A stretch of 40,401 nucleotides of DNA from Spirochaetes bacterium GWF1_51_8. GTDB lineage: Bacteria > Spirochaetota > Brevinematia > Brevinematales > GWF1-51-8. Below are positions 969 to 28,606 of the stretch, piece by piece; within the stretch, counting starts at the first letter, position 1; every line of letters begins with the position of its first letter. The translations under genes and the position numbers were made by a program. Where the stretch lies: positions 1-40,401 of the forward strand of contig MIBE01000046.1 of NCBI GenBank assembly GCA_001829415.1, written 5' to 3'. Under the pieces are notes generated by a model. That model searched no databases and had not been told where the DNA came from. It saw nothing but the letters and a program-made list of their open reading frames with translations.

Positions 969-3524
969 GTGAAAATTTCCAGGTGGATTTTTATCTATCT
1001 GTTTATCCATCTTGCGCTGGTTTCCATCTTCCTCGCCCTCAATAATAAATCTTTCCATGATAATATCGGTTTCTTTATCCAGGAAAGCTCGCAGAAAAAA
1101 GAAGAGCTTTTCCACCTCATCTACTCGTTAAAAACAGAATCGATCTGGAAAATGGCTATCGATTACACCTACTGGGACGACATGGTCAAATTCGTGAAAA
1201 CCGAAAACAAGTCATGGGCGACTGCAAACCTCAGTATGATACCCGAGACTTTTTCTATCGACGCGGTATGGGTATATAATCCGGATGCTAAACCGGTCTA
1301 CTTCGACTCGGTAATCACCAATCCCGATTTTCGGGACGTTCTTCAGTTTATCAGAATCGACCCAAAAAGTATTATCTCTCATTTCGCCACAAACAGAATG
1401 CTCGAACTTTTTATCGAGCAGGGCGGACGATTCTTCCAGATATTCGGGATAACTATCCACCCGACCGCCGACGCCGGCCGTATTACCCCGCCGGCAGGGT
1501 ATTTTTTTACCGCGAAGGAATGGGATCAGGAGTATCTGCAGGAGTATAAAGACGCTCTTCAGTTCGAAATTATCGAGCTACACCCGTACCAAACTCCTCT
1601 CTCGAATAGAGGGTTTTCAGCGGACGATCCCCTTCTCACCGGATATATGCCGCTTCCGGGTAGCGGGAATCCGTTCGAAGTGATGTTCCGTTTCAACGAA
1701 GGTTCTCTCGGCGAATACCGCGACCGTCTGATAGGCCAGGAACTGCTTCTCCAGCTTTTCCTCATCATCTCGTATGTATTCATGTTCTTCTTCCTGCTGA
1801 ACAGGATCGCCGTCCCGAACCGCAGGATTTCGCTCGCGTTAAAGAACAATTCCATCCAGCCTGTGAAGGATCTGCTGAAATCGGACTCCGAGTTCGGGGA
1901 CATCAGCCGTATGATCGAAAAATTCCTGATCACTACCGACGAGCTCGAGTTGACGAACACCCAGCTTAGGCTGATCGAGGCACACCAGCGCACCATGCTC
2001 GACAATATCCCGTTCGTAGTCTGGCTGAAGGACCGGGAAAACCGGTTCATGGATGTCAATAAAGAGTTCGAGGTTTTCTATAAGCTGAAACGGAATCAGA
2101 TTCTGGGGAAAACGAACGAGGAAATCTTTCCGAAGGATGTAGGTTTACTGTATTCAAAAATCAACAATGAAATGACAAAAAAACAGAAAAAGCTGTCCGG
2201 AAGAACCTCAATCAATTTCGATGGGCGGATCATCTATATCGAATACTTCCTTTCGCCCGTTTTCGACCAAAAGGACGATTACATCGGGCTTGCCGGTATG
2301 TTCCGCGATATAACCGATCAGACTCTCAACGAAGAAGAGCGAAGTAAGCTCCAGAACCAGATCAACCAGATCAATAAGATCGACACGATCGGGAAAATGG
2401 CCGGAGGGGTCGCGCACGAATTCAGGAACTACCTGACCATCATCAAGGGGTATGCCGAACTCCTGCTCATGCGTACGGATGCCGACCCCGGCGATAGCCA
2501 ATCCCTCGAACAGATCGTCAAAGCGGCGGATAACGCCACGGTTATCACTTCCCAACTGCTGGCATTCAGCCGAAAGCAGATTATCAGGCCGCAGACGATG
2601 AACCTGAACGTAAAACTTTTCGAGCTCCAGGCGGTGATCCAGCGCCTGCTCGGCGAGAATTACCAGATCAAACTCCTTCTCGATCAGGATATCAAGGTGA
2701 TCTCCGCCGACCCCATGCAGATCGAACAAATCATCTTCAATCTCACGTTAAACTCGCGCGACGCCATGCCGCACGGCGGTGTCATCACATGGAAAACCCG
2801 CAACGCCGAGATCGGCGAAGAGTACTGCAAAACCTATACCTACGCCGTCCCGGGGAAATACACCGCCTTCTCGATCATCGATTACGGGACGGGAATGTCC
2901 GAAGAGGTACTGAAAAAAATCTTCGATCCGTTCTTTACCACAAAGGAATCGGGTAAAGGGACTGGCCTCGGGCTTTCGGTGGTGTACGGGATTGTGAAAC
3001 AGCATAACGGCTGGATCAATGTCGAAAGCGCCCCCGGCGAAGGAACCTCGTTCGAGCTCTTTTTCCCCGTGACTCACGGCGTACAGAACTCGGCGATGGC
3101 AAACGAAGAACGGGTCGCGCAGGTGTTCCGCGGTAACGGCGAAATGATCCTTTATCTCGAGGACGAGAACGGTGTCCGTAACCTTGTCGCCGACACATTG
3201 AATTCATGGAACTACCATATTATCGCATGCCCGGATATTATGACGGCGCGTGAAAAGTACGAGGAGAACCGGAAAAATATCCGCCTTTTTATCTCGGATA
3301 TCCTTCTCCCCGACGGGAACGGGATAGAGTTCGCGCAGGAGATCCAGTCCGATAATCCCGGCCTGCCGGTCATCCTGACAAGCGGGTACGCGGACGCCGC
3401 TATCCGCGCCGACCAGATCGAATCGATGAACCTCGATTTTATCCAGAAGCCGTTTACGCTCGTAGAGCTGATAAAACGAATCCGAGGTCATCTCGATCTC
3501 AGTGAAACTTCTTCCGGCGAATAG
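969..3524 (+). CDS. Hybrid sensor histidine kinase, CHASE4-PAS-HisKA-HATPase-REC
   Basis: This is a membrane-bound sensor kinase (851 aa) with a fused receiver. A GTG start at 969 follows GGAGG at 955-959. Residues 7-25 form the first membrane segment. The extracytoplasmic region contains DYTYWDDMVKFV, typical of CHASE4 sensors. A second membrane segment lies at about 258-280. A PAS domain (about 340-455) precedes the HisKA box GGVAHEFRNYL with phospho-acceptor His483. The ATPase shows LNSRDAMPHGG, DYGTGMSEE and GTGLGLSVVYGIVKQ. The receiver has acidic LEDE, phospho-acceptor Asp777 in LFISDILLPDGNG, and the conserved QKPF lysine. All catalytic residues are present. No DNA-binding response regulator lies nearby, so phosphate probably passes to an unlinked partner. 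Ligand unknown. Confidence 0.93.
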   Translation: MKISRWIFIYLFIHLALVSIFLALNNKSFHDNIGFFIQESSQKKEELFHLIYSLKTESIWKMAIDYTYWDDMVKFVKTENKSWATANLSMIPETFSIDAVWVYNPDAKPVYFDSVITNPDFRDVLQFIRIDPKSIISHFATNRMLELFIEQGGRFFQIFGITIHPTADAGRITPPAGYFFTAKEWDQEYLQEYKDALQFEIIELHPYQTPLSNRGFSADDPLLTGYMPLPGSGNPFEVMFRFNEGSLGEYRDRLIGQELLLQLFLIISYVFMFFFLLNRIAVPNRRISLALKNNSIQPVKDLLKSDSEFGDISRMIEKFLITTDELELTNTQLRLIEAHQRTMLDNIPFVVWLKDRENRFMDVNKEFEVFYKLKRNQILGKTNEEIFPKDVGLLYSKINNEMTKKQKKLSGRTSINFDGRIIYIEYFLSPVFDQKDDYIGLAGMFRDITDQTLNEEERSKLQNQINQINKIDTIGKMAGGVAHEFRNYLTIIKGYAELLLMRTDADPGDSQSLEQIVKAADNATVITSQLLAFSRKQIIRPQTMNLNVKLFELQAVIQRLLGENYQIKLLLDQDIKVISADPMQIEQIIFNLTLNSRDAMPHGGVITWKTRNAEIGEEYCKTYTYAVPGKYTAFSIIDYGTGMSEEVLKKIFDPFFTTKESGKGTGLGLSVVYGIVKQHNGWINVESAPGEGTSFELFFPVTHGVQNSAMANEERVAQVFRGNGEMILYLEDENGVRNLVADTLNSWNYHIIACPDIMTAREKYEENRKNIRLFISDILLPDGNGIEFAQEIQSDNPGLPVILTSGYADAAIRADQIESMNLDFIQKPFTLVELIKRIRGHLDLSETSSGE

Positions 3525-3752
3525 GATTTACCCCCCGGCGCGGAATAATATTTTCGCTGAAACTCCTTGTCTAAAAACCGGGTTCTTTCTATAATAAGGG
3601 TAGTTCAAAAACCTTGATATTTCGAATATTTCAAGACATAATCGATAATAAATAGCTCAATGGTCACTTCATTATGTTGATTATTTGAAGTAACAAATTA
3701 CTATCGGGTTTTCTAAAAACTTTTAAGATTTTAGAAAACCTTTGAACACATT

Positions 3753-4351
3753 CTTACTTTCTTTCTGAGCGGGCACCGCGCCTTCCGCCTGCCTTACATC
3801 TCAGAAGGAAGGCATGTCTGCTTTTGCGAAACAGAATGCAGGTGAACAGGACGATGGCGTCGGCGGACAGGGAAAGAAAGTAACAAAGAACCCCGCAAGG
3901 AACGCGGGACAAGCTACCCGCCGCGCTGATAAAGCTCAGGGGAAGAGCCGGAAAATCCGGAAAAGGCATAACTCCTTCCTTCGGTCGTCCGACCCGCCAT
4001 CCATGGCTCCTGTCGGACCTTCTCCCTTCCGTGGGAGTCGTCGGACAAATGCCTTTTCTTCGGATTTTCCGGGAGTTTTAAGCGCTTTAAAGTGCGCGGG
4101 TGAAACAGCCAACTTCAATCTACCATGTAGTTATATCTTCGGCTGTTCGAACCCCGCCGCTATGCCGTGACTTCTACCAAGCGGAACGGCCAGAAACGCC
4201 GATGTCCGAAGCGCGACTTTCAATCGCTTTTTTTGGCAGTTGAACGCGAGTTTCGGCGTTTCCCGTTTCGCGCCCCTTCTCTTTGGAACGGCATCGGGCG
4301 GGGAACCTCTTTCTTTGGTTCTTTCTTTCTGGGTTTGAAGAAAGAAAGAAC
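3753..4351 (+). repeat. Large structured non-coding repeat, copy A
   Basis: The gene-free stretch 3525-4415 is mostly one dispersed repeat, also present inverted at 6639-7090 and again at 24057-24576. The left end has the arm CTTACTTTCTTTCTG (3753-3767). Its partner arm GGAAAGAAAGTAA sits at 3871-3883 because about 100 bases are inserted in the loop. A long internal stem pairs CCGGAAAATCCGG plus AAAAGGCAT (3948-3969) with 4049-4072. A palindromic block around GCGCTTTAAAGTGCGC follows, and another stem pairs GCGGAACGG..GAAACGCCG with its complement before 4280. The right-end hairpin is GTTCTTTCTTTCTG/AAGAAAGAAAGAAC (4318-4351). Reading frames inside are not shared between copies, so I do not call a protein. 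An outer hairpin with TTCTAAAA arms flanks it at 3711-3740. Confidence 0.8.
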
Positions 4352-4415
4352 AGAGTGTTTTGCACCTTGGAGAGTATTAGAACTCCCCTATACTATAACA
4401 GAAAAGAGGGTATCT

Positions 4416-6149
4416 ATGAGAGTCTTGCGTTTCGCTCTCGCGCAGATCAACACGACAGTCGGCGATATCGACGGCAACCTGAAGAAGATGAAGGACGCCG
4501 TAGTCAGGGCGTCCGATGAGAATGCCGACGTCCTCATTTTTCCCGAATTGACTATCCCCGGCTATCCGCCGGAAGACCTGGTTTATAAAGCCCAGTTTAT
4601 CGATTCGAATATCAACGCGCTGAAAGAGCTCGCGGATTTCACATCGTCATACGATATGCTGATCTTCGCCGGGTTTATCGACCGTGAGGACGATATCTAC
4701 AATGCCGCGGCGGTGCTCCACAGGGGAAACCTTGTCGATATCTACCGCAAGATTTACCTTCCGAACTACGGCGTGTTCGACGAGAAGCGCTATTTCGCGT
4801 CGGGCTCCACCATCCCGATCTATATCTACAAGAACGTCAGGATCGGATACAATATCTGCGAAGACCTCTGGTATCCCGACGGCCCGGGGCATTACCAGGC
4901 CTCTGTGGGCGACGCCGAGGTCATCCTGAACGCGAGCGCATCGCCGTACCAGACCGGGAAGCAGGAATTCCGCGAGAAGATGTATTCCGCTCGCGCGGGA
5001 GACGAGATCGCCGTCCTGATGAACTGCAACCTGATCGGCGGGCAGGACGAGTTGGTGTTCGACGGGACATCCACCGCGTATGACGAAACCGGCAGTCTGA
5101 TCGCGCGGCTGGAACCGTTCTCCGATGACTTCCAGTGCTTCGATATCAATGTCGAGACGGTTTTCCTCAAGCGGCTGAAAGACATCCGACGCCGTGAGCG
5201 CAAGACACTCCAGACCAGCCCGTTCCCTATCAAGGAATTCCAGATCGGCGGAAAACAGCTTCCGTCCGCCGCGATAGAGAAGCCGCCGTTCGTGAACGAG
5301 CTCGCCGACGAGACAAGCTCGATCTACCGGGCACTCGTGCTCGGGACACGCGACTATATGAACAAGAACGGGTTCAAGGACGCGCTGATCGCGGTATCGG
5401 GCGGGATCGATTCCGCACTCGTAGCCGCAATCGCCGCCGAGGCTATCGGCCCGGAGCGTGTGCACGGTATCTACCTGCCGTCGCGCTTTTCAGCGTCTAT
5501 CAGCGGCGAGGACGCGCACCTGCTCGCGAAGAACCTCGGGATCGATATGCACGAACTCGCCATCCAGCCCCTTTTCGAGGACTACCTGAAAACCCTCGAG
5601 GCGCCGTTCCAGGGGAAACCGTTCGATACCACAGAAGAAAACCTCCAGTCGCGTATCAGGGGCAATATCATCATGGCGCTTTCCAATAAATTCAACTGGC
5701 TTGTCCTGACGACGGGCAATAAAAGCGAGATGAGCACGGGCTATGCCACCCTCTATGGCGACATGGCGGGCGGCTTCGCGGTTATCAAGGATGTACTGAA
5801 AACGGTGGTGTACAGGCTCGCCGACTATATCAACTGCGAGAACGAGGTCATCCCGAGGCGGATTATCGACCGTCCGCCCTCGGCGGAACTCCGGCCCGAC
5901 CAGAAGGACACTGACTCCCTGCCGGAGTACGACATCCTCGACCGGATCATCTGCGCGTATGTGGAAGAGGACTGGTCGCTCGAAGCGATCGTGAAGGATA
6001 TCGGCGACGAGGGTTTGGTGAAGCGGGTGATGAAGCTCATCGACCGTTCGGAGTACAAACGGCGTCAGGCGCCTCCCGGAATTAAGATCACCCCGAGAGC
6101 GTTCGGGCGCGACAGGCGTATGCCGATCACGAACCGTTACCAAGCGTAG
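4416..6149 (+). CDS. nadE: Glutamine-dependent NAD+ synthetase
   Basis: It catalyses the last step of NAD biosynthesis: deamido-NAD plus ATP and glutamine-derived ammonia give NAD. At 577 aa it has the two-domain glutaminase type. The N-terminal nitrilase-like domain (about 1-270) has the triad Glu44 (FPELTIPG), Lys112 (YRKIYLPNYG) and Cys148 (YNICEDLWYPDG). The C-terminal synthetase has the ATP-binding SGGIDS loop at 328-333, and TTGNKSEMSTGYATLYGD. An open frame continues upstream to 4167, but that part lies inside repeat copy A and does not resemble the family. ATG 4416, preceded by AGAGGG, gives the canonical N-terminus MRVLRFALAQINTTVGDIDGN (start shown). The next gene starts 12 bases after the stop. 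Confidence 0.96.
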   Translation: MRVLRFALAQINTTVGDIDGNLKKMKDAVVRASDENADVLIFPELTIPGYPPEDLVYKAQFIDSNINALKELADFTSSYDMLIFAGFIDREDDIYNAAAVLHRGNLVDIYRKIYLPNYGVFDEKRYFASGSTIPIYIYKNVRIGYNICEDLWYPDGPGHYQASVGDAEVILNASASPYQTGKQEFREKMYSARAGDEIAVLMNCNLIGGQDELVFDGTSTAYDETGSLIARLEPFSDDFQCFDINVETVFLKRLKDIRRRERKTLQTSPFPIKEFQIGGKQLPSAAIEKPPFVNELADETSSIYRALVLGTRDYMNKNGFKDALIAVSGGIDSALVAAIAAEAIGPERVHGIYLPSRFSASISGEDAHLLAKNLGIDMHELAIQPLFEDYLKTLEAPFQGKPFDTTEENLQSRIRGNIIMALSNKFNWLVLTTGNKSEMSTGYATLYGDMAGGFAVIKDVLKTVVYRLADYINCENEVIPRRIIDRPPSAELRPDQKDTDSLPEYDILDRIICAYVEEDWSLEAIVKDIGDEGLVKRVMKLIDRSEYKRRQAPPGIKITPRAFGRDRRMPITNRYQA

Positions 6150-6161
6150 AAGGAATGCACG

Positions 6162-6476
6162 ATGAGTAAGAACCCGCAGGTATTCAGCGAACTCGAAATG
6201 AAGATAGGGGGCGCGATCCGCGAACGTTACACCGATACGCTGGAAGCGGAACTATCCCCGGAGCAGAAAAAGGTGCTCGACGAGTGGATGGATGTCGAAA
6301 TCCGTCACCTTCTGGCGTCATCGGTATCGATCTCGAAGCTCGAAATCCGGACGGCATCGGTCGTCCTCATGTTCGGCAAGAAGTTCGAGAAGGTCAAGGA
6401 GATACTCAGGATCATGCACGACCACGAGCTGACTGAAAATTCCGAATTGTTCGGCCGTCTGCTCGGTTTATTGTGA
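6162..6476 (+). CDS. Small hypothetical protein downstream of nadE
   Basis: This 104-residue, charged, mostly helical protein has no signal peptide or membrane segment and no cysteines. I do not recognise its family. The ATG at 6162 follows AGAAGGAA by a few bases and lies 12 bases beyond the nadE stop, so the two are very probably co-transcribed. The base composition matches nadE. The C-terminal half (KFEKVKEILRIMHDHELTEN) looks like a helical bundle. Any role in NAD metabolism would be inference from position only. Confidence 0.7.
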   Translation: MSKNPQVFSELEMKIGGAIRERYTDTLEAELSPEQKKVLDEWMDVEIRHLLASSVSISKLEIRTASVVLMFGKKFEKVKEILRIMHDHELTENSELFGRLLGLL

Positions 6477-6638
6477 GTTTTCCCCGGCAATTAAGTAATT
6501 AGTGTATGGGCGATTCCGATGAGCGAGGCTTTTGCGCGTAAAATAAAGTTTTTTGTAGAAAAATAGCGCCCAATGGTCAATTCTTTTGTTAAGGATTTAA
6601 GGGAGTTCTAAAAACTCTCCTGTGATGCAAAACCCTCA

Positions 6639-7090
6639 ATGCTTTCTTTCTGCAAACCCAGAAAGAAAGCATAAAAGAAAGAGGTTCCCCGCCAGATGCC
6701 GTTCCAAAGAAGAGAGGCGCGGAACGGGAAACGCCGAAACTCGCGGTCAATTACCTTAAAAAGCGATAAAGAGTCGCGCTTTGGACATCGGCGTTTCTGG
6801 CCGTTCCGCTTAGAAGAAGTCGCGGCATAGCGGCGGGGTCCGTACAGCCGAAGACATAACTACATCGCGGAATTGAAGTTGGCTGTTTTACCCGCGCACT
6901 CTAAAGCGCTTCTAACCACCGGAAAATCCGACCAAGGGCGCATGTCCGACGCTGTTCCTTTGTCGCTTCAAGTGGTCATCTCATGCGAGTTGCGCCCGTT
7001 TTGGATTTTCCGGCTCTTCCCCAGAGCTTTATCAGCGCGGCGGCTCTTTCTTTGCTTACTTTCTTTCTGACCGTGCAGAAAGAAAGTAAG
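6639..7090 (-). repeat. Large structured non-coding repeat, copy B (inverted)
   Basis: The interval 6477-7243 holds no gene. Its core is the same element as at 3753-4351, in opposite orientation. The end hairpins are perfect: ATGCTTTCTTTCTG (6639-6652) with CAGAAAGAAAGCAT (6659-6672), and CTTACTTTCTTTCTG (7055-7069) with CAGAAAGAAAGTAAG (7076-7090). The internal stem pairs CCGGAAAATCCGACC (from 6919) with the stretch ending at 7013. Relative to copies A and C, the first hairpin changes its outer three pairs on both arms together, so the stem is kept. The copy lacks the loop insertion of copy A and is the most compact of the three. Outer TTCTAAAAAC motifs lie at 6606 and 7106. Confidence 0.8.
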
Positions 7091-7185
7091 AGTGAATTCA
7101 TGGATTTTCTAAAAACCTTCAGGTTTTTAAAAGTGGGCGGTGCCCTTAAGCTATGACTATATTTTTAAAATATCGAGCCAAATGC

Positions 7186-7214
7186 TTGAAAATACTTATA
7201 AAAAATGCTACATT
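7186..7214 (+). promoter_or_regulatory. Promoter of the lipoprotein operon at 7244
   Basis: TTGAAA (7186-7191) and TACATT (7209-7214) are exactly 17 bases apart, about 30 bases before the ATG. The element lies just outside repeat copy B. Confidence 0.6.
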
Positions 7215-7243
7215 AAGAGAGAATAAAATATGGAGGATTATCC

Positions 7244-8539
7244 ATGAAAGAACTTAAGAAGAAAGGAACCATAATGGGTGTGTTCTTTTTATTCGCCGTG
7301 ATGGTGTTGTCATGCGGGTCGTCGGGCGCCGCGGTCCAGCCTCAGAATTACGGCGGAGGCAATTCCGGCAGTCAGCAGGTGATCGACGACGAACTGGTCT
7401 TCCAGTCCACCGGCGTAGCTCCCGAATGGAACGACGCTAAAAATATGGCTTATACGGAAATCGTGAAGAAGGCCGTGGCTTACCTCGGCTATGATGTCAA
7501 CAACGCCGATATCAAGGGCAACTTCCTCACATGGCAGAAGGCCTCTAAGTATATCAACGGCAAGTGGAAGAAATGGGTTTCTTCTTCGCGTAACGAAGCC
7601 GGCGAAATGGTTCTTCAGTTCGAAGCGCCTATTTTCGTCAAGAAGCTGAATGACGATATCAAATCGATGGGAATCGGTAAACCCGCTGTCACTCCCCAGA
7701 AAGACCCGGAGATCGCTCCTGTCAATCCCCAGAAAGACCCCGATGTTAAAGATAACGGCAATGTCACGGCTCAGGATTTCAACGACGTCGATATTTCGTC
7801 GTTGACCTTCCTCGTCACCTACAACGAAAAGCAGTTCGAAGGTTTGGATCCCGATTTCGAATCCTACGCGCAGTGGGGCGTCACGATGATCAACAAGGAA
7901 CTCGCGGCGGCTAATATCCAGGTTTTCGATGTCGAAACAATGGAACAGCTCAAGGAAGAAAAGAACCTTCTGCAGGAAGCCAATTCCGGCAGTTTGGATA
8001 TCGGCATGCTTCTCGCTAACGAAGTATTCGCGGAACTTTACGCCCAGATCACTCCCGATGTGAACTATCAGGGTAAAAAGGCTCATGTCATGCTGACCGT
8101 AAAGGTATTCGCCCGCACCACGGGTAAACTCGTCGCCACGATCGAAAAGGGCGGCTTGGAATACGAACTCAACAACAAGACCGTATCGATCAAGGCCAGT
8201 ATGAAGGACGCCGTGGCGAAAGTGATGAAGGAACTTGTTCCCGCGCTCAAGAAGTATATCGGCGGCGGACGCTTCTACTATGTCAGCATCCAGGGCCTCG
8301 CTTCATCGAAGGAAGCGATCTCTTTCTCGTCGGCGGTGAAGAAAGTCAGCGGGGTTATCAATGTCACGATGAAGTCCGGGTCGAAGTCTGCCGGAACGTT
8401 CGATTTCTATGTCCAGTTTAAGGGCAACCCTACCGACCTTCTCGAAGCGTTGTTCACCGACCTCGGCAGTCAGCCCGGGTTCGAAGATTTCGACCTTCTC
8501 GAGATGCGCGGTAACGAATTGATGTTTACATTACAATAA
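7244..8539 (+). CDS. Lipoprotein, LPP20-like N-terminal part
   Basis: This 431-residue secreted lipoprotein has the lipobox MVLSCG (Cys at about residue 25), after which a low-complexity linker begins. Residues about 45-145 (VFQSTGVAPEWNDAKN...) carry the 'APxW' signature seen in the smaller paralogues of this window and in LPP20-type domains. A Pro/Lys/Asp-rich linker with the duplicated piece NPQKDPD follows. A second domain (about 185-320; LTFLVTYNEKQFEGLDPDFE) and a C-terminal domain (about 335-431) resemble the layout of outer-membrane assembly or FlgT-like proteins, but this is only inference. GGAGG at 7231-7235 sets the start. The lipoprotein at 8575 follows after 35 bases. Confidence 0.8.
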   Translation: MKELKKKGTIMGVFFLFAVMVLSCGSSGAAVQPQNYGGGNSGSQQVIDDELVFQSTGVAPEWNDAKNMAYTEIVKKAVAYLGYDVNNADIKGNFLTWQKASKYINGKWKKWVSSSRNEAGEMVLQFEAPIFVKKLNDDIKSMGIGKPAVTPQKDPEIAPVNPQKDPDVKDNGNVTAQDFNDVDISSLTFLVTYNEKQFEGLDPDFESYAQWGVTMINKELAAANIQVFDVETMEQLKEEKNLLQEANSGSLDIGMLLANEVFAELYAQITPDVNYQGKKAHVMLTVKVFARTTGKLVATIEKGGLEYELNNKTVSIKASMKDAVAKVMKELVPALKKYIGGGRFYYVSIQGLASSKEAISFSSAVKKVSGVINVTMKSGSKSAGTFDFYVQFKGNPTDLLEALFTDLGSQPGFEDFDLLEMRGNELMFTLQ

Positions 8540-8574
8540 TAAGGATAAAAAAACTAATTTAAGGAGGGTCTTCA

Positions 8575-9216
8575 ATGAAGAAGGCTATTCTCGTACTGAG
8601 TGCATTTGTGTTCGTGTTGATGTCCTGCGGCGGACAGGCTACCCAGCCTACCCCTCAGCCCACCCCTCAGCCTACTAAGGCGGCTAAGATTGAACTGAAC
8701 ATCATCCAGCAGAGCAAGACTCCTGCTCCCGATTGGGCAACCAGCGATGAAGCATGGAGCGAAGGCGCCGAAGGCGGAAAGAAGTTCGTGTATCTTCGTG
8801 TCGAAGCTGAAGATCCCCAGAAAGAAACCGCTAAGCTCTTAGCTCAGGGTCAGAAGATCGCCCAGATGGCTGACGCGATCAAACAGCTTGCCACCCACGA
8901 GTTCGCGAAAGTGACCGAAGGTATGGCGGGCGAAGGCGCGGGTCTCGAAACCTACGTCTATGACGCAGTCGCGGCTGTTTCCAAGAATGTCGATACTTCC
9001 GGAGCTCTGGAAGCCGGCACCTATTGGGAATATGTTCAGGAAATCAAGGGCGCCGATGACAAGACCTACTATCGCTACATTATCCGCTTCAAAATCGACT
9101 ATGACAAGTTCATGGCCGCCATGAAGGGCGCATGGGGCGCACAGGTCAAGGCTATCAATCCCGAACTCAAAGAGAAGGGACAGAAGATGCTTGACGCTAT
9201 CAACGGCGCACAGTAA
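8575..9216 (+). CDS. LPP20-like lipoprotein, paralogue 1
   Basis: The 213 residues comprise a signal peptide, lipobox LMSCGG (Cys at 18), and a spacer with PQPT repeats (TPQPTPQPT). A single globular domain from about residue 45 begins QQSKTPAPDW and ends PELKEKGQKMLDAINGAQ. From QQSKTPAP onward it differs from the protein at 38080-38730 at only about ten positions, and less closely matches those at 37263 and 36591. The function is unknown; the anchor and conserved APxW start suggest a periplasmic or surface protein. AGGAGG sits 8 bases before ATG. It follows the lipoprotein at 7244 in the same operon and is closed by the strong terminator at 9234. Confidence 0.85.
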   Translation: MKKAILVLSAFVFVLMSCGGQATQPTPQPTPQPTKAAKIELNIIQQSKTPAPDWATSDEAWSEGAEGGKKFVYLRVEAEDPQKETAKLLAQGQKIAQMADAIKQLATHEFAKVTEGMAGEGAGLETYVYDAVAAVSKNVDTSGALEAGTYWEYVQEIKGADDKTYYRYIIRFKIDYDKFMAAMKGAWGAQVKAINPELKEKGQKMLDAINGAQ

Positions 9217-24680: not shown

Positions 24681-24709
24681 TTGACTTCTTAATAGTTGTA
24701 ATATACAAT
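24681..24709 (+). promoter_or_regulatory. Promoter with overlapping operator, hgcAB operon
   Basis: TTGACT (24681-24686), 17 bases, TACAAT (24704-24709). The -10 box overlaps a perfect palindrome, TTGTA-ATA-TACAA (24696-24708), the size and type of a MarR-family operator. Binding there would block RNA polymerase. The regulator encoded at 25165 is the obvious candidate. Confidence 0.7.
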
Positions 24710-24748
24710 AGATGTAATATGAGTATAATAATTGCGGAGGTATCATTC

Positions 24749-25138
24749 ATGCTAAGTAAAATTCTCTCAATTATCGGCGGATTTCTTACGGCGGGGTGGG
24801 GTATTACTCATCTGATTCCCACAGGAAACGTCGTCAAAGGTTTTGGGGGAATTTCAATCGATAATTCGCGGATTATTTTAATGGAATGGATAAATGAAGG
24901 ATTTACATTAATCTTCATCGGGTTAACTGTTATTTTAATCGCGCTTATTGAAAAAAAGCCGGCCGCCGCGAAAAAGATCGTTTATATCCTCTCTACCGCA
25001 ATGCTTATTGCTATGGCCGTGCTTTCAATATTTACCGGGTTTCAGAATGATTTTTTGCCTTACAAGCTATGTCCGGTTATTTTCACCGTATCGGCGGGTT
25101 TAATCTTCCAGGGTGTTTTTACAGAATCCAAATCCTGA
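24749..25138 (+). CDS. Small four-segment membrane protein, first gene of the hgc operon
   Basis: The 129-residue hydrophobic protein has segments at about 5-25, 47-67, 75-95 and 105-123. Motifs include GWGITHLIPTGNVVKGFGGI and LMEWINEGFTLIFIG. I do not recognise the family with certainty. ATG 24749 follows GCGGAGG by nine bases; the frame starts earlier at 24719, before the ribosome site, so that is rejected. The marR gene begins 26 bases after the stop. A membrane role linked to metal handling is possible but is only inferred from the operon. Confidence 0.7.
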   Translation: MLSKILSIIGGFLTAGWGITHLIPTGNVVKGFGGISIDNSRIILMEWINEGFTLIFIGLTVILIALIEKKPAAAKKIVYILSTAMLIAMAVLSIFTGFQNDFLPYKLCPVIFTVSAGLIFQGVFTESKS

Positions 25139-25164
25139 ATAAATATAATAAAAAGGTGTATAAC

Positions 25165-25632
25165 ATGGATCATAATGACTACGGCGAACTAAGAAAAACG
25201 CTAAGGATTTTGGAGCGTGAAATCGAGAAGGTTATTGAAGATCAAAGCGGATGCTGCGGGGTGAGTTTCGCCCAGTGTCATACGTTATTGGAGATAGAAG
25301 AAATTGGGGAAGTTTCTATTAAGGCGCTCTCGGAGCGTCTTGAATTAGATAACAGCACATTAAGCCGCACTATCGATAAAATGGTAAAAGACGGTCTAAT
25401 TCACCGGACTGAAAATCCATCCGACCGTCGATATCTTATGCTTTCGCTTACCGACAACGGGAAAAAAACCGCGAATTCGATCGGATTGATGTGTAATGGG
25501 TATTATCGGGAACTTTTTGAGAATATTCCCGTTGAAAAACACAATCAAATCATAGATAGTATCGGGATTCTCGCATCCTCGATGAAAAAGATGCGGAAAA
25601 AGTCTTCAAATTCTAAGAATTGCTGTAAATAA
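25165..25632 (+). CDS. MarR-family regulator with cysteine pairs, probable hgc operon regulator
   Basis: This 155-residue winged-helix regulator has its DNA-binding domain at VSIKALSERLELDNSTLSRT, then DKMVKDGLIHR and the wing NPSDRRYLMLSLTDNG. Cys30, Cys31 and Cys38 (SGCCGVSFAQCH) precede the helix-turn-helix, and the protein ends NCCK (Cys153, Cys154). Such clusters could bind a thiophilic metal or metalloid. From memory, MarR proteins with this CCG...QCH pattern occur near arsenic-related genes; I cannot check that here. ATG 25165 gives a normal MarR N-terminus, though the frame starts earlier. hgcA follows after 18 bases. The palindrome on the upstream promoter is its likely target. Confidence 0.87.
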   Translation: MDHNDYGELRKTLRILEREIEKVIEDQSGCCGVSFAQCHTLLEIEEIGEVSIKALSERLELDNSTLSRTIDKMVKDGLIHRTENPSDRRYLMLSLTDNGKKTANSIGLMCNGYYRELFENIPVEKHNQIIDSIGILASSMKKMRKKSSNSKNCCK

Positions 25633-25650
25633 ACTAAAGCGAGGTTTATT

Positions 25651-26682
25651 ATGGGATGCGGATGTAATAGCCCGGAGTGGATTGTCGGGATGCACAATAT
25701 CGGACTACGGAACATTCCACGTGTCTCGGGAAAACTTTCTTTCCGCGACCGTTTGGGCGCATTAAGGATGCGTCTTGGGATCGGACGGATGAAGTATTCC
25801 GTGCCGCCGGGTCTGTATACTATCGGGACGCCCGATGAAAACTCCGATGTTTTCGTCACCGCGAACTACAAGCTGAGTTTCGATAAACTCCGTGAGAGCC
25901 TCGACGGCATCTCCGCGTGGATCCTCGTTCTGGATACGAAGGGCATCAACGTCTGGTGCGCCGCCGGAAAGGGGACGTTCGGCACCGACGAGCTGACCGG
26001 CAGAATCCTTCGGACAGGCCTCGCGAAGATAGTCATGCATCGTAAGCTGATTCTTCCCCAGCTCGGCGCGGTGGGAGTTTCGGCGTATCAAGTCACCAAG
26101 GCCGCGGGATTTAAGATCGCCTACGGGCCGGTGCTCGCGAGGGATATCCCGGGCTATATCGCGAACGGTTACGAGAAGACGCCTGAGATGCGTGAAGTAA
26201 AATTCGGGTTTATCGACCGTCTGATCCTCACGCCGATAGAACTGAAAGCCGCGCTCATCCCCCTTTTGATCGGGTTGGCGGTTTATCTTACAGTCGCGTC
26301 CCTGCGCTCCGGGGTGTTCAAAGCCGAGTTCCTGATCGGGTTCCTGCCGTTCCTCGGCGCTCTTATTACCGGCGCGGTGTTAGTCCCCGTGTTACTGCCG
26401 TTCATTCCGGGCAAGGCGTTCTCGCTGAAAGGCTCGATCGCGGGACTTTTGTGGGCGGGGGCTTCGATTTGGATATTCAGGCCGGACTTCTGGACATCGC
26501 TGATCTACTTCCTGACTATCCCCGCGATTTCCGCGTTCCTCGCGATGAACTTCACCGGCGCGAGTACGTTCACCACCCTTTCCGGGGTCAAACTGGAAGT
26601 GCGGATCGTCACGCCGTTCGCGGCCGTCCTCTGCGCCGCCAGCCTCGCGCTCGGCATTTTACAGACTGTCAACGTCATCTAA
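25651..26682 (+). CDS. hgcA: Mercury methylation corrinoid protein HgcA
   Basis: HgcA carries a methyl group on a corrinoid and transfers it to Hg(II), producing methylmercury with HgcB. The 343 residues match the family length. The cap-helix signature is N100-V-W-C-A-A-G-K107; Cys103 is the residue expected to ligate cobalt. The corrinoid domain spans about 45-185 (IPPG-like VPPGLYTIGTPDENSDVFVT to AYGPVLARDIPGYI). About five membrane segments follow (197-218, 224-252, 260-276, 283-300, 318-343), the domain that separates HgcA from CdhD/AcsC-type corrinoid proteins. Unusual are two N-terminal cysteines (MGCGCNSPEW). The ribosome site of hgcB overlaps its stop. Confidence 0.95.
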   Translation: MGCGCNSPEWIVGMHNIGLRNIPRVSGKLSFRDRLGALRMRLGIGRMKYSVPPGLYTIGTPDENSDVFVTANYKLSFDKLRESLDGISAWILVLDTKGINVWCAAGKGTFGTDELTGRILRTGLAKIVMHRKLILPQLGAVGVSAYQVTKAAGFKIAYGPVLARDIPGYIANGYEKTPEMREVKFGFIDRLILTPIELKAALIPLLIGLAVYLTVASLRSGVFKAEFLIGFLPFLGALITGAVLVPVLLPFIPGKAFSLKGSIAGLLWAGASIWIFRPDFWTSLIYFLTIPAISAFLAMNFTGASTFTTLSGVKLEVRIVTPFAAVLCAASLALGILQTVNVI

Positions 26683-26693
26683 GGAGAAACCCG

Positions 26694-27083
26694 ATGAAAT
26701 TCACCTACCTGAAAAACGGCGAAAGCCTCGCGCTATCCGCGAATAGCTGTACCGGCTGCGGAACCTGTGTCGAGGTCTGCCCTCACGAGGTATTCGATAT
26801 CCGCGAGAAAAAAGCCGTAATCGTCAACCGGAATTACTGCATGGAATGCGGGGCTTGCGCTCTCAACTGTCCGGCAGGAGCGCTCGAGGTAAAAAGCGGA
26901 GTGGGATGCGCCGCCGCCGTGCTGAGCGGTCTCCTCAAGGGGAAAGAAGCCTCATGCGGCGGAGACGGGGATTCATCCTGCGGGTGCGACTCACAGGATG
27001 TGAGAAGTCCCGTGCTGACAGGACGTCAAGGAGCGGGACGATCCTCACAGGATGTGAGAAGCTCTTCCGGCGGGTGCTGTTGA
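26694..27083 (+). CDS. hgcB: Mercury methylation ferredoxin HgcB, with an insertion
   Basis: HgcB is a two-[4Fe-4S] ferredoxin that reduces the HgcA corrinoid and helps deliver Hg(II). The first cluster is C19-x2-C22-x2-C25-x3-C29-P, the second C49-M-E-C52-G-A-C55-x3-C59-P, the HgcB signature. Cys72 (GVGCAAAVL) matches the conserved extra cysteine, and the C-terminus GGCC has the vicinal pair (128, 129). At 129 residues it is longer than the roughly 95 of typical family members. The extra length is a cysteine-bearing linker (EASCGGDGDSSCGCD) plus an SQDVRS-type insertion at about 100-123 made of DNA palindromes. ATG 26694 follows AAGGAG directly at the hgcA stop. Confidence 0.94.
   Translation: MKFTYLKNGESLALSANSCTGCGTCVEVCPHEVFDIREKKAVIVNRNYCMECGACALNCPAGALEVKSGVGCAAAVLSGLLKGKEASCGGDGDSSCGCDSQDVRSPVLTGRQGAGRSSQDVRSSSGGCC
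26990..27058 (+). repeat. Palindromic insertion within hgcB
   Basis: Two identical hairpins CTCACAGGATGTGAG (26990-27004 and 27044-27058) flank a third with arms GTCCCG (27007-27012) and CGGGAC (27034-27039) and an inner TGAC/GTCA. The 17-base block TCACAGGATGTGAGAAG is repeated 54 bases apart. The insertion keeps the frame and encodes SQDVRSPVLTGRQGAGRSSQ and the following DVRS. Confidence 0.85.
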
Positions 27084-27136: not shown

Positions 27137-27165
27137 TTGAAAAATATGACGTTTGTCTCTATAAT
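27137..27165 (+). promoter_or_regulatory. Promoter of ahcY
   Basis: TTGAAA (27137-27142), 17 bases and a perfect TATAAT (27160-27165), about 40 bases before the ahcY start. It shows that ahcY can be transcribed apart from hgcAB. Confidence 0.75.
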
Positions 27166-27205: not shown

Positions 27206-28606
27206 ATGGATTACAAAGTAAAAGATATCGAACTGGCGGAATGGGGCAGAAAGGAAATCGAGATCGCGGAAAAAGAAATGCCGGGCTTAATGTCGGTACG
27301 TGAAAAGTACGGTAAGCTGAAACCGCTCAAGGGAGTGCGTATTTCCGGATCGCTCCACATGACGATCCAGACCGCGGTCCTCATAGAGACGTTAGCCGAA
27401 CTCGGCGCGGATATCCGTTGGTGCAGCTGTAATATATTCTCGACACAGGATCATGCCGCGGCCGCTATCGCGAAACGCGGTATCCCGGTGTTCGCGTGGA
27501 AGGGCGAATCCCTCGAAGAATACTGGTGGTGCACACGTCAGGCGCTCAACTTCCCCGGCGGTAAGGGCCCGGAGCTGGTTGTCGACGACGGCGGAGACAT
27601 CACCCTCCTCATCCATTGGGGATACAAGGCCGAAAAAGATCCGAGTTCCATCAAACGGACTCCCGGCAGTAAAGAAGAAGGGATTATCCTTCAATTGATC
27701 GAAACGATGCTGAAAGAAGAACCGAATAAATGGACGGCCACGGTGAAGGACTGGAAAGGTGTTTCCGAAGAAACCACCACCGGCGTCCACCGTCTGTATC
27801 AGATGATGGAAAAGGGCGAATTGCTCGTACCGGCAATCAACGTCAACGACTCGGTGACCAAGTCCAAGTTCGACAATCTTTACGGGTGCCGCGAGTCGCT
27901 GGTCGACGGGATTAAGCGCGCGACCGATGTGATGATCGCGGGTAAGGTCGCGGTTGTCTGCGGATACGGCGATGTGGGTAAGGGTTCCGCCAAGTCGCTC
28001 CGCGGGCTGGGCGCACGTGTCATCGTGACCGAAATCGACCCCATCTGCGCGCTTCAGGCCGCGATGGAAGGCTACGAGGTCACGACTATCGAAGACACTC
28101 TCGGCGAAGGCGATATCTATGTCACTACCACCGGGAACTGCGAAGTCATCACGATCGACCATATGAAGAAGATGAAAGATCAGGCGATCGTCTGCAATAT
28201 CGGACATTTCGATAACGAGATTCAGGTCACACAGCTCGAAGACTTCCCCGGTATCAAGAAGCTCAATATCAAGCCCCAGGTCGACAAGTACACATTCCCC
28301 GACGGGCATGCGATTTTCCTGCTCGCGGAAGGCCGTCTCGTGAACCTCGGATGCGCCACCGGCCATCCCTCGTTCGTCATGTCGAACTCGTTCACGAACC
28401 AGACCCTCGCACAGCTCGACCTCTGGAAGAACAAGGACACCTATAAGCCCAACGTTTACCGCCTGTCGAAACAGCTCGACGAGGAAGTCGCGAGACTCCA
28501 TCTCGAGAAAATCGGCGTGAAGCTGACCAAGCTCAGCAAGAAGCAGGCCGACTATATCGGCGTTTCGCCCGACGGACCGTACAAGCCGGAGCATTATAGA
28601 TACTAA
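27206..28606 (+). CDS. ahcY: S-adenosylhomocysteine hydrolase (adenosylhomocysteinase)
   Basis: This NAD-dependent enzyme splits S-adenosylhomocysteine into adenosine and homocysteine, recycling the by-product of SAM methylations. It has 466 residues. Motifs are [16 protein letters not shown], the NAD-binding [35 protein letters not shown] and the C-terminal [11 protein letters not shown] that completes the partner subunit's cofactor site. The open frame starts at 27137, but ATG 27206 behind CAGGAGAGAAAC gives a normal N-terminus. It sits 122 bases after hgcB on the same strand; a link to mercury methylation is suggestive only. Confidence 0.96.

What the first reader, a model, noticed from the sequence alone, without database searches (positions are those of the whole stretch)
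24681..27083. A complete, apparently metal-regulated hgcAB mercury-methylation operon
HgcA has the cap-helix motif NVWCAAGK with Cys103 plus a five-segment membrane domain; HgcB has both 4Fe-4S motifs including CMECGAC and a C-terminal cysteine pair. Together these are diagnostic (established knowledge of the family). They are the last two genes of a tight unit with a small membrane protein and a MarR regulator bearing CC and C-terminal CC cysteines. The unit has a consensus promoter whose -10 box lies inside a perfect palindrome. If the MarR protein senses Hg, As or another thiophilic species, methylation would be inducible here.
Basis: partly seen in the sequence, partly recalled or inferred. 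Interest (0 to 1): 0.93.

Follow-up and report, generated by a model that had tools for sequence, protein, structure and literature searches.

The report
Mercury-methylation genes under arsenic-type switch
A spirochaete-group bacterium carries the complete mercury-methylation gene pair hgcAB behind a cysteine-rich MarR-type regulator, and relatives of that regulator sit beside the arsenic-methylation gene arsM in other bacteria with the same DNA motif upstream, so arsenic or a similar thiol-loving metal is predicted to switch methylmercury production on.

Summary
Window 25651-26682 is HgcA (NCBIfam NF040863, 415.6 bits, cut-off 275) and 26694-27083 is HgcB (NF040864, 113.3, cut-off 99). Both follow a small membrane protein and a MarR regulator. 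The promoter TTGACT-N17-TACAAT (24681-24709) has its -10 box in the inverted repeat TTGTA-ATA-TACAA (24696-24708).

Comparison went further. The MarR belongs to a subfamily with Cys30-Cys31, Gln37-Cys38 and usually a C-terminal Cys pair. Three phylum searches at E <= 1e-25 gave 92 places: 29 beside hgcA, 43 beside arsM (arsenite methyltransferase), 20 elsewhere, 8 of these with ArsP-, ArsA- or ArsN1-type neighbours. The motif TTGYANNNTRCAA is exact upstream of 22 of 39 hgcA-linked and 30 of 43 arsM-linked regulators, against 0 of 79 hgcA loci without this MarR.

Best reading: hgcAB here is under an arsenic-type MarR repressor that binds over the -10 box and is likely released when trivalent arsenic (or Hg) binds its cysteines. 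Binding, repression and inducer are untested. ArsR control of hgcAB is reported; this MarR subfamily's cysteine motif, operator and sharing with arsM I did not find in print (open-licence searches only).

The parts
24681..24709 (+). sigma-70-like promoter TTGACT-N17-TACAAT of the S-marR-hgcA-hgcB unit
   Evidence: 10 of 12 consensus matches; the same hexamers and spacing directly before marR in sister genome G002; also in G001
24696..24708 (+). predicted operator TTGTA-ATA-TACAA, overlapping the -10 box
   Evidence: only match in the window with up to 1 mismatch (at least one such match in 36 of 100 shuffles, so the lone site means little); conserved upstream of this MarR subfamily in other genomes
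24749..25138 (+). S: 129-aa hydrophobic (predicted membrane) protein of unknown function, first gene of the unit here
   Evidence: not found in G001, G002 or G008
25165..25632 (+). MarR-family regulator, 155 aa, Cys30-Cys31, Gln37-Cys38-His39, Cys153-Cys154
   Evidence: PF01047 58.1 bits against 24.6; subfamily profile A1; AlphaFold2 model mean pLDDT 88.8
25651..26682 (+). hgcA, mercury-methylation corrinoid protein, 343 aa
   Evidence: NF040863 415.6 bits against cut-off 275; NVWCAAGK with Cys103
26694..27083 (+). hgcB, ferredoxin with two 4Fe-4S motifs, 129 aa, with a repeat-bearing C-terminal tail that keeps the final CC
   Evidence: NF040864 113.3 bits against cut-off 99
27137..27165 (+). 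separate promoter-like sequence TTGAAA-N17-TATAAT ahead of the next gene (ahcY); suggests that ahcY is not part of the unit
   Evidence: 11 of 12 consensus matches

Best explanation
Window 24681-27083 is a complete hgcAB mercury-methylation operon that is predicted to be repressed by its own MarR-type regulator, which would bind an operator over the -10 box and likely let go when trivalent arsenic (or another thiophilic metal such as Hg(II)) binds its conserved cysteines. Shown by sequence and calls: hgcA and hgcB pass their curated family cut-offs; the gene order, promoter and inverted repeat are there; the same MarR subfamily sits beside hgcA or arsM in several phyla with the same upstream motif. 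Inferred: that MarR binds this motif, that binding represses (the site overlaps the -10 box), that S, marR, hgcA and hgcB are one transcript, and that the signal is arsenic-like. In this model As(III) or methylarsenite entering the cell loads the Cys30/31/38 and C-terminal Cys thiols, MarR leaves the promoter, and HgcAB rises, so Hg methylation becomes part of an arsenic or thiophilic-metal response.
For: (1) Families. (2) Linkage in the window's phylum: of 296 Spirochaetota genomes, 39 have hgcA over the cut-off; the regulator profile finds 17 places at E <= 1e-25, 15 directly upstream of hgcA, 1 upstream of arsM, 1 other; 11 of those 15 were not training rows of the profile. (3) Other phyla: 60 places in 56 of 398 genomes of the phylum of Acetivibrio mesophilus (7 hgcA, 35 arsM, 18 other) and 15 places in 15 of 297 genomes of the phylum of an Aminicenantes genome (7 hgcA, 7 arsM, 1 other). 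41 of 43 arsM neighbours match the NCBIfam arsenite methyltransferase model at E <= 1e-40. (4) Motif: exact TTGYANNNTRCAA in 22 of 39 hgcA-linked, 30 of 43 arsM-linked, 14 of 23 other loci and 0 of 79 hgcA loci without this MarR; dinucleotide shuffles 0.2-0.4%. Exact strict TTGTANNNTACAA, first seen in hgcA loci: 16 of 39, 12 of 43, 6 of 23, 0 of 79. (5) Sister genome G002 keeps promoter hexamers, spacing and operator arms directly before marR. (6) Cysteines: Cys30 in 38 of 39 hgcA-linked, 41 of 43 arsM-linked and 4 of 14 lower-scoring MarRs; Cys38 in 34 of 39 and 35 of 43. (7) Of the 18 'other' places, 8 have an arsenic-type neighbour: five PF03773 permeases, one ArsA/GET3-family ATPase, one ArsN1a acetyltransferase over its cut-off and one below it. 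(8) Reported by others: an ArsR-like protein controls hgcAB, with arsenic-induced changes, in Pseudodesulfovibrio mercurii ND132 (as told in passages of PMC10349881).
Against: No binding, transcript or methylation data were available for this genome. The ligand is inferred from neighbours only: arsM-type neighbours suggest arsenic but do not exclude Hg, Sb or thiol stress. The profile was built from 17 hgcA-linked rows, so the Spirochaetota score gap partly reflects training. CC in the last 30 residues is missing in 12 of 39 hgcA-linked rows and Cys31 in 6 of 39. The motif is not exact in 17 of 39 hgcA-linked loci, and the degenerate form was fixed after both sets had been seen. No ArsM homologue was found in the window's own genome at E <= 1e-15 (one query, genome 93.5% complete). 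24 of the 39 hgcA-bearing Spirochaetota genomes do not have this regulator beside hgcA, so it is one of several solutions. Ten of the 18 'other' places, and the PF03773 permeases' substrates, are not tied to arsenic by any test here (their NCBIfam matches, SaoE and SO_0444 Cu/Zn efflux, are all below cut-off). One of 14 lower-scoring MarRs also has an ArsM-like neighbour over 100 bits.
Confidence: 0.62

Rival explanations
1. Same MarR-operator switch, but the physiological signal is Hg(II) (or Hg-thiol complexes), so the operon is a true mercury-inducible methylation system and the arsM-linked members are a separately tuned branch.
For: The window's MarR lies in a starred set of 4 hgcA-linked rows and a larger starred set of 32 rows of which 27 are hgcA-linked, so ligand tuning by lineage is possible; two- and three-thiol sites can bind Hg(II) (general knowledge).
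Against: The core cysteines and the motif are the same in hgcA- and arsM-linked members, the two labels need at least 8 changes on the tree, and 8 of the 18 other neighbours are arsenic-type.
Confidence: 0.17
2. The MarR is a general thiol or redox sensor (reactive sulfur, electrophile or disulfide stress) that happens to control metal-methylating enzymes.
For: MarR proteins that sense by cysteine oxidation are known (OhrR type; general knowledge); in the model Cys30-Cys31 end the first helix and Cys38 lies in the second, so a disulfide could form (distances not measured). One Spirochaetota member lies beside a C_GCAxxG_C_C family protein.
Against: 72 of the 92 placed members neighbour hgcA or arsM, and 8 more neighbour arsenic-type genes.
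Confidence: 0.13
3. The neighbourhood is coincidental or historical: MarR only autoregulates itself (and S) and hgcAB is transcribed independently or constitutively.
For: 24 of 39 hgcA-bearing Spirochaetota genomes lack this MarR beside hgcA; two promoter-like sites of 9 of 12 matches (25517, 25532) lie inside marR ahead of hgcA; no transcript data.
Against: Gaps of 11-26 bp within the unit; the order recurs in several phyla; the promoter at 24681 scores higher (10 of 12).
Confidence: 0.08

Closest known systems
ArsR-like control of hgcAB (Pseudodesulfovibrio mercurii ND132; Gionfriddo et al. 2023 as told in passages of PMC10349881 and PMC12953829; the paper itself was not held)
   Same: A winged-helix regulator encoded upstream of hgcAB, with arsenic as the reported inducer
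   Different: There the regulator is ArsR-like (PF01022 as told in PMC10349881); here it is MarR family with its own cysteine pattern and motif, and its subfamily also sits at arsM. In one fetched locus, Acetivibrio mesophilus (L148), both a MarR of this subfamily and a small ArsR-like protein lie before hgcA (ArsR by eye, not scanned)
[quoted passage not shown]
   Same: MarR-family gene upstream of hgcA
   Different: The passages read give no cysteine motif, operator, phylum-wide survey or arsM link; whether those proteins belong to this subfamily was not tested here
The 'putative transcriptional regulator' immediately upstream of hgcAB in 112 genomes (PMC7438021, passages read)
   Same: A recurrent regulator immediately before hgcAB across phyla
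   Different: Its family is not stated in the passages read; it may be ArsR-like or overlap this one, not tested
arsM operon with ArsR, arsM-acr3-MPPE-arsR1 of Paraclostridium bifermentans EML (PMC11653729, passages read)
   Same: Arsenic methylation under a metal(loid)-responsive repressor
   Different: ArsR there; in the 43 arsM loci the adjacent regulator is the MarR subfamily described here
MarR-family proteins with solved structures (best profile matches 3s2w and 4xrf)
   Same: Sequence similarity over the winged-helix domain
   Different: In the two alignments shown these chains do not carry the CC...QC cysteines

Membership tests
HgcA (mercury-methylation corrinoid protein) | Curated HgcA model above cut-off | tested here: met
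   NF040863 415.6 bits, cut-off 275
HgcA (mercury-methylation corrinoid protein) | Cap-helix motif N(V/I)WCAAGK with the Co-liganding Cys (motif recalled) | tested here: met
   NVWCAAGK, Cys103
HgcA (mercury-methylation corrinoid protein) | C-terminal membrane domain of about five segments (recalled) | tested here: inconclusive
   overlapping hydrophobic segments between residues 191 and 343; a simple hydropathy scan does not separate them
HgcA (mercury-methylation corrinoid protein) | Placement in an HgcA tree outside CdhD/AcsC | not tested
   no HgcA tree was built; only model scores
HgcA (mercury-methylation corrinoid protein) | Methylmercury formation | not testable with these tools
   needs assay of the organism or an enrichment
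HgcB | Curated HgcB model above cut-off, two 4Fe-4S motifs, C-terminal Cys pair | tested here: met
   NF040864 113.3 bits, cut-off 99; motifs and CC128-129
MarR family | PF01047 above gathering score; predicted MarR helix and wing order | tested here: met
   58.1 bits against 24.6; model with H3-31, H35-47, H52-59, H63-75, E79-83, E91-95, H97-119, H123-149 (no fold search was run)
hgcA/arsM-linked MarR subfamily (defined here) | Cys30, Gln37, Cys38, C-terminal CC, hgcA or arsM adjacent, TTGYANNNTRCAA motif upstream | tested here: met
   the window row has all of them, with the motif before S rather than directly before marR
ArsR-controlled hgcAB | ArsR-family regulator (PF01022) beside hgcAB | tested here: not met
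   the regulator upstream of hgcA is MarR (PF01047); no PF01022 match for it at E <= 0.001
Arsenic- or mercury-responsive repressor | Binds As(III) or Hg(II) and leaves DNA | not testable with these tools
   inferred from cysteines and neighbours only

The most novel reading that the evidence does not exclude
One family of cysteine-rich MarR sensors, using one operator (TTGYA-N3-TRCAA over the -10 box), switches two unrelated metal(loid)-methylation chemistries, SAM-dependent arsenic methylation (ArsM) and corrinoid-dependent mercury methylation (HgcAB), and has been swapped between them repeatedly; mercury methylation in these bacteria is a branch of the arsenic response and arsenic induces methylmercury formation.
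Probability: 0.5. Interest if true: 0.87.

Novelty: new variant of a known kind. Interest (0 to 1): 0.7.

Why it matters
What hgcAB is for, and what turns it on, are open questions. A second, independent arsenic-type regulator family wired to hgcAB by a definable operator would make 'mercury methylation belongs to an arsenic or thiophilic-metal response' directly testable, give a sequence signature for predicting inducible methylators in metagenomes, and imply that arsenic co-contamination may change methylmercury output.

Tried and rejected
S as a conserved partner of HgcAB: rejected. It was found in 3 of 296 Spirochaetota genomes; the fetched loci of the other two show no hgcA by eye, and it is absent between the same promoter and marR in G002. 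It belongs to a metagenome-wide family (156 proteins at E <= 1e-5; 51-67% identity in the listed rows other than its own), and a relative follows hgcB in one Bacillota locus (L012), so a loose link is not excluded.

A regulon in the window's own genome: TTGTAWNWTACAA occurs at one other place, C70:149353, before a sugar-ABC binding-protein-like gene (by eye) with a TTGACT-N16-TACAAT arrangement; the reversed control pattern also hits once, so this is not beyond chance.

ahcY as part of the operon: it follows hgcB in G001 and G002 too but has its own promoter-like sequence.

ArsM in the own genome: none at E <= 1e-15 with one query taken from G110.

Literature: searches (open-licence PMC only). 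I read passages of nine papers: PMC7438021, PMC10349881, PMC11653729, PMC8060452, PMC12953829, PMC7862947, PMC8649762, PMC11308531, PMC6514844. Only PMC10349881 has a MarR gene beside hgcA; none has one beside arsM (in PMC8649762 'MarR' stands only in the reference list; in PMC7862947, PMC11308531 and PMC6514844 the 'marr' hits are place or author names or 'marrow'). The other listed papers were not opened, and subscription papers are mostly not held.

HgcA tree and a fold search: not run.

Rows dropped or changed: L116 (upstream truncated) from the motif count; L131 (G001, MarR broken by Ns) from the tree. Of 106 hgcA loci (80 plus 26; a few are the same locus twice, e.g. L024/L096), 24 have this MarR; of the other 82, 8 had under 500 bp upstream and 8 no upstream reading frame, leaving 66; the 79 control loci are those of the 82 with 200 bp upstream. 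In one search the window's region before S was used, and G001's region was picked by its -35 string; without these two changes both score near chance. The degenerate motif was fixed after seeing both sets. Best strict match of 8 of 10 or better occurs in 36 of 39 hgcA-linked and 36 of 43 arsM-linked loci, but also in 18% and 12% of mononucleotide shuffles. 16 of the 39 hgcA-linked rows were training rows of the protein profile; of the other 23, 11 have the exact degenerate motif.
Full report
What is there. The window lies in a 3.54-Mb, 93.5% complete genome (G000:C46). A genome of the same order, G008, holds a 4858-base contig that matches L010, a record named Brevinematales bacterium, and the MarR of genus-mate G002 appears as a Brevinematales protein in one source (contig length 22726 in both). 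Along the plus strand: promoter TTGACT-N17-TACAAT (24681-24709), inverted repeat TTGTA-ATA-TACAA (24696-24708), S (24749-25138, hydrophobic, 129 aa), MarR (25165-25632), hgcA (25651-26682), hgcB (26694-27083), then ahcY with its own promoter-like site. HgcA and HgcB pass their NCBIfam cut-offs; one hgcA match was found in this genome.

The regulator recurs beside hgcA. In 296 Spirochaetota genomes hgcA passes its cut-off in 39. The subfamily profile A1 (17 hgcA-linked rows) finds 17 places at E <= 1e-25 (100 bits or more): 15 directly upstream of hgcA (11 not training rows), 1 before arsM, 1 other. Of 14 lower-scoring Spirochaetota MarRs whose loci were fetched, none has hgcA in its locus, one has an ArsM-like neighbour at 138.5 bits and two have weak ones at 45-47 bits.

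The same subfamily sits beside arsM. In the phylum of Acetivibrio mesophilus, 56 of 398 genomes hold 60 places (E <= 1e-25): 7 beside hgcA, 35 beside arsM, 18 other. In the phylum of an Aminicenantes genome, 15 of 297 genomes hold 15 places: 7 hgcA, 7 arsM, 1 other. Over the three phyla: 29 hgcA, 43 arsM, 20 other of 92. Of the 43 arsM neighbours, 41 match NF008823 (arsenite methyltransferase) at E <= 1e-40; the five scanned singly all pass its cut-off. Of the 18 'other' places, five neighbour a PF03773 (ArsP_1) permease (their NCBIfam matches are efflux families below cut-off), one an ArsA/GET3-family ATPase, one an ArsN1a acetyltransferase over its cut-off and one below it; ten were not tied to arsenic. 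A search of the genomes of 50 of the 80 loci gave 17 places of 98 bits or more, three of them not adjacent to hgcA: one 6.5 kb from hgcA among molybdenum-cofactor-like genes (by eye), one with a divergent ArsN1a-like gene below its cut-off, one with no clear link.

The motif. Upstream of marR in hgcA-linked loci from several phyla TTGTA-N3-TACAA recurs, in some followed about 16 bp later by a second, weaker copy and often near a TTGAC-type -35 (by eye). Exact strict motif: 16 of 39 hgcA-linked, 12 of 43 arsM-linked, 6 of 23 other, 0 of 79 hgcA loci without this MarR. With TTGYANNNTRCAA: 22 of 39, 30 of 43, 14 of 23 and 0 of 79, dinucleotide-shuffle rate 0.2-0.4%; at 9 of 10 or better 32, 35, 18 and 3. 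Of 66 loci with the exact degenerate motif, 26 have a sigma-70-like promoter whose -10 box overlaps it and 39 one whose -35 to -10 span overlaps it (no shuffled control was run for this). In sister genome G002 the -35 and -10 hexamers, the 17-bp spacing and the operator arms are identical; the centre is TAT instead of ATA and two other spacer bases differ; they stand directly before marR without S. So in the window S lies between a conserved promoter and marR.

The cysteines. Cys30 is kept in 38 of 39 hgcA-linked, 41 of 43 arsM-linked, 16 of 23 other and 4 of 14 lower-scoring MarRs; Cys31 in 33, 35 and 15 of the first three sets; Cys38 in 34, 35 and 14; CC in the last 30 residues in 27, 38, 16 and 3 of the four sets. 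In the AlphaFold2 model (mean pLDDT 88.8) Cys30-Cys31 end the first helix, Cys38 lies in the second, and Cys153-Cys154 lie in a low-confidence tail; distances were not measured.

History. On a quick tree of 118 rows (148 columns; 44 of 115 inner branches open) the hgcA and arsM labels need at least 8 changes between them; the window's MarR lies in a starred set of 4 hgcA-linked rows. This suggests that the regulator has been passed between the two targets more than once; direction is not shown.

How it likely works. The motif overlaps the -10 box here, which fits repression; the gene order fits autoregulation. The association with arsM and other arsenic-type genes makes As(III) or methylarsenite the likeliest signal, in line with the ArsR-like, arsenic-linked control of hgcAB reported for ND132 (passages of PMC10349881). 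Of 66 upstream genes scanned from hgcA loci without this MarR, 32 match the ArsR family (PF01022) at E <= 0.001, 4 match MarR weakly (best 3.4e-5) and 3 MazE, so ArsR-type and MarR-type regulators both stand at hgcAB. All functional steps are inferred.

What is known and new. [quoted passage not shown] I found nothing on the cysteine motif, the operator or the sharing with arsM in searches and the passages of nine papers; most listed papers were not opened.

Noticed in passing
window 26992-27061: The 3' end of hgcB holds two copies of a 16-mer that also occurs exactly on two other contigs of the genome (and with one mismatch on two more); the HgcB tail is about 30 aa longer than in G001 and G002 but stays in frame and keeps the final CC. 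A dispersed repeat seems to have landed in a Cys-rich tail.
   Followed up: partly
window 27206-28606: S-adenosylhomocysteine hydrolase (ahcY) directly follows hgcB, also in G001 and G002, with its own promoter-like site in the window.
   Followed up: partly
L148 (Acetivibrio mesophilus) 1495-3426: A MarR of this subfamily, then a small ArsR-like protein (by eye), then hgcA: possible double control.
   Followed up: no
L090 (G041) 2-2797: hgcA follows a CusA-like pump piece and a small Cys-rich YHS-like protein (by eye), with no MarR of this subfamily in the locus.
   Followed up: no
L176 (Ruminiclostridium hungatei) 3441-8641: A MarR of this subfamily stands before a run of molybdenum-cofactor-like genes (by eye) about 6.5 kb from hgcA; its upstream motif match is poor (6 of 10).
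   Followed up: partly
L012 (Bacillota) 7285-7653: A relative of the window's S protein (40%) starts at the end of hgcB in a locus with an ArsR-like gene (by eye) before hgcA: a second S-hgcAB association.
   Followed up: partly
G000:C70:149353-149365 (L259): The only other TTGTAWNWTACAA in the genome, with a promoter-like arrangement before a sugar-ABC binding-protein-like gene; the control pattern also hits once, so it may be chance.
   Followed up: partly
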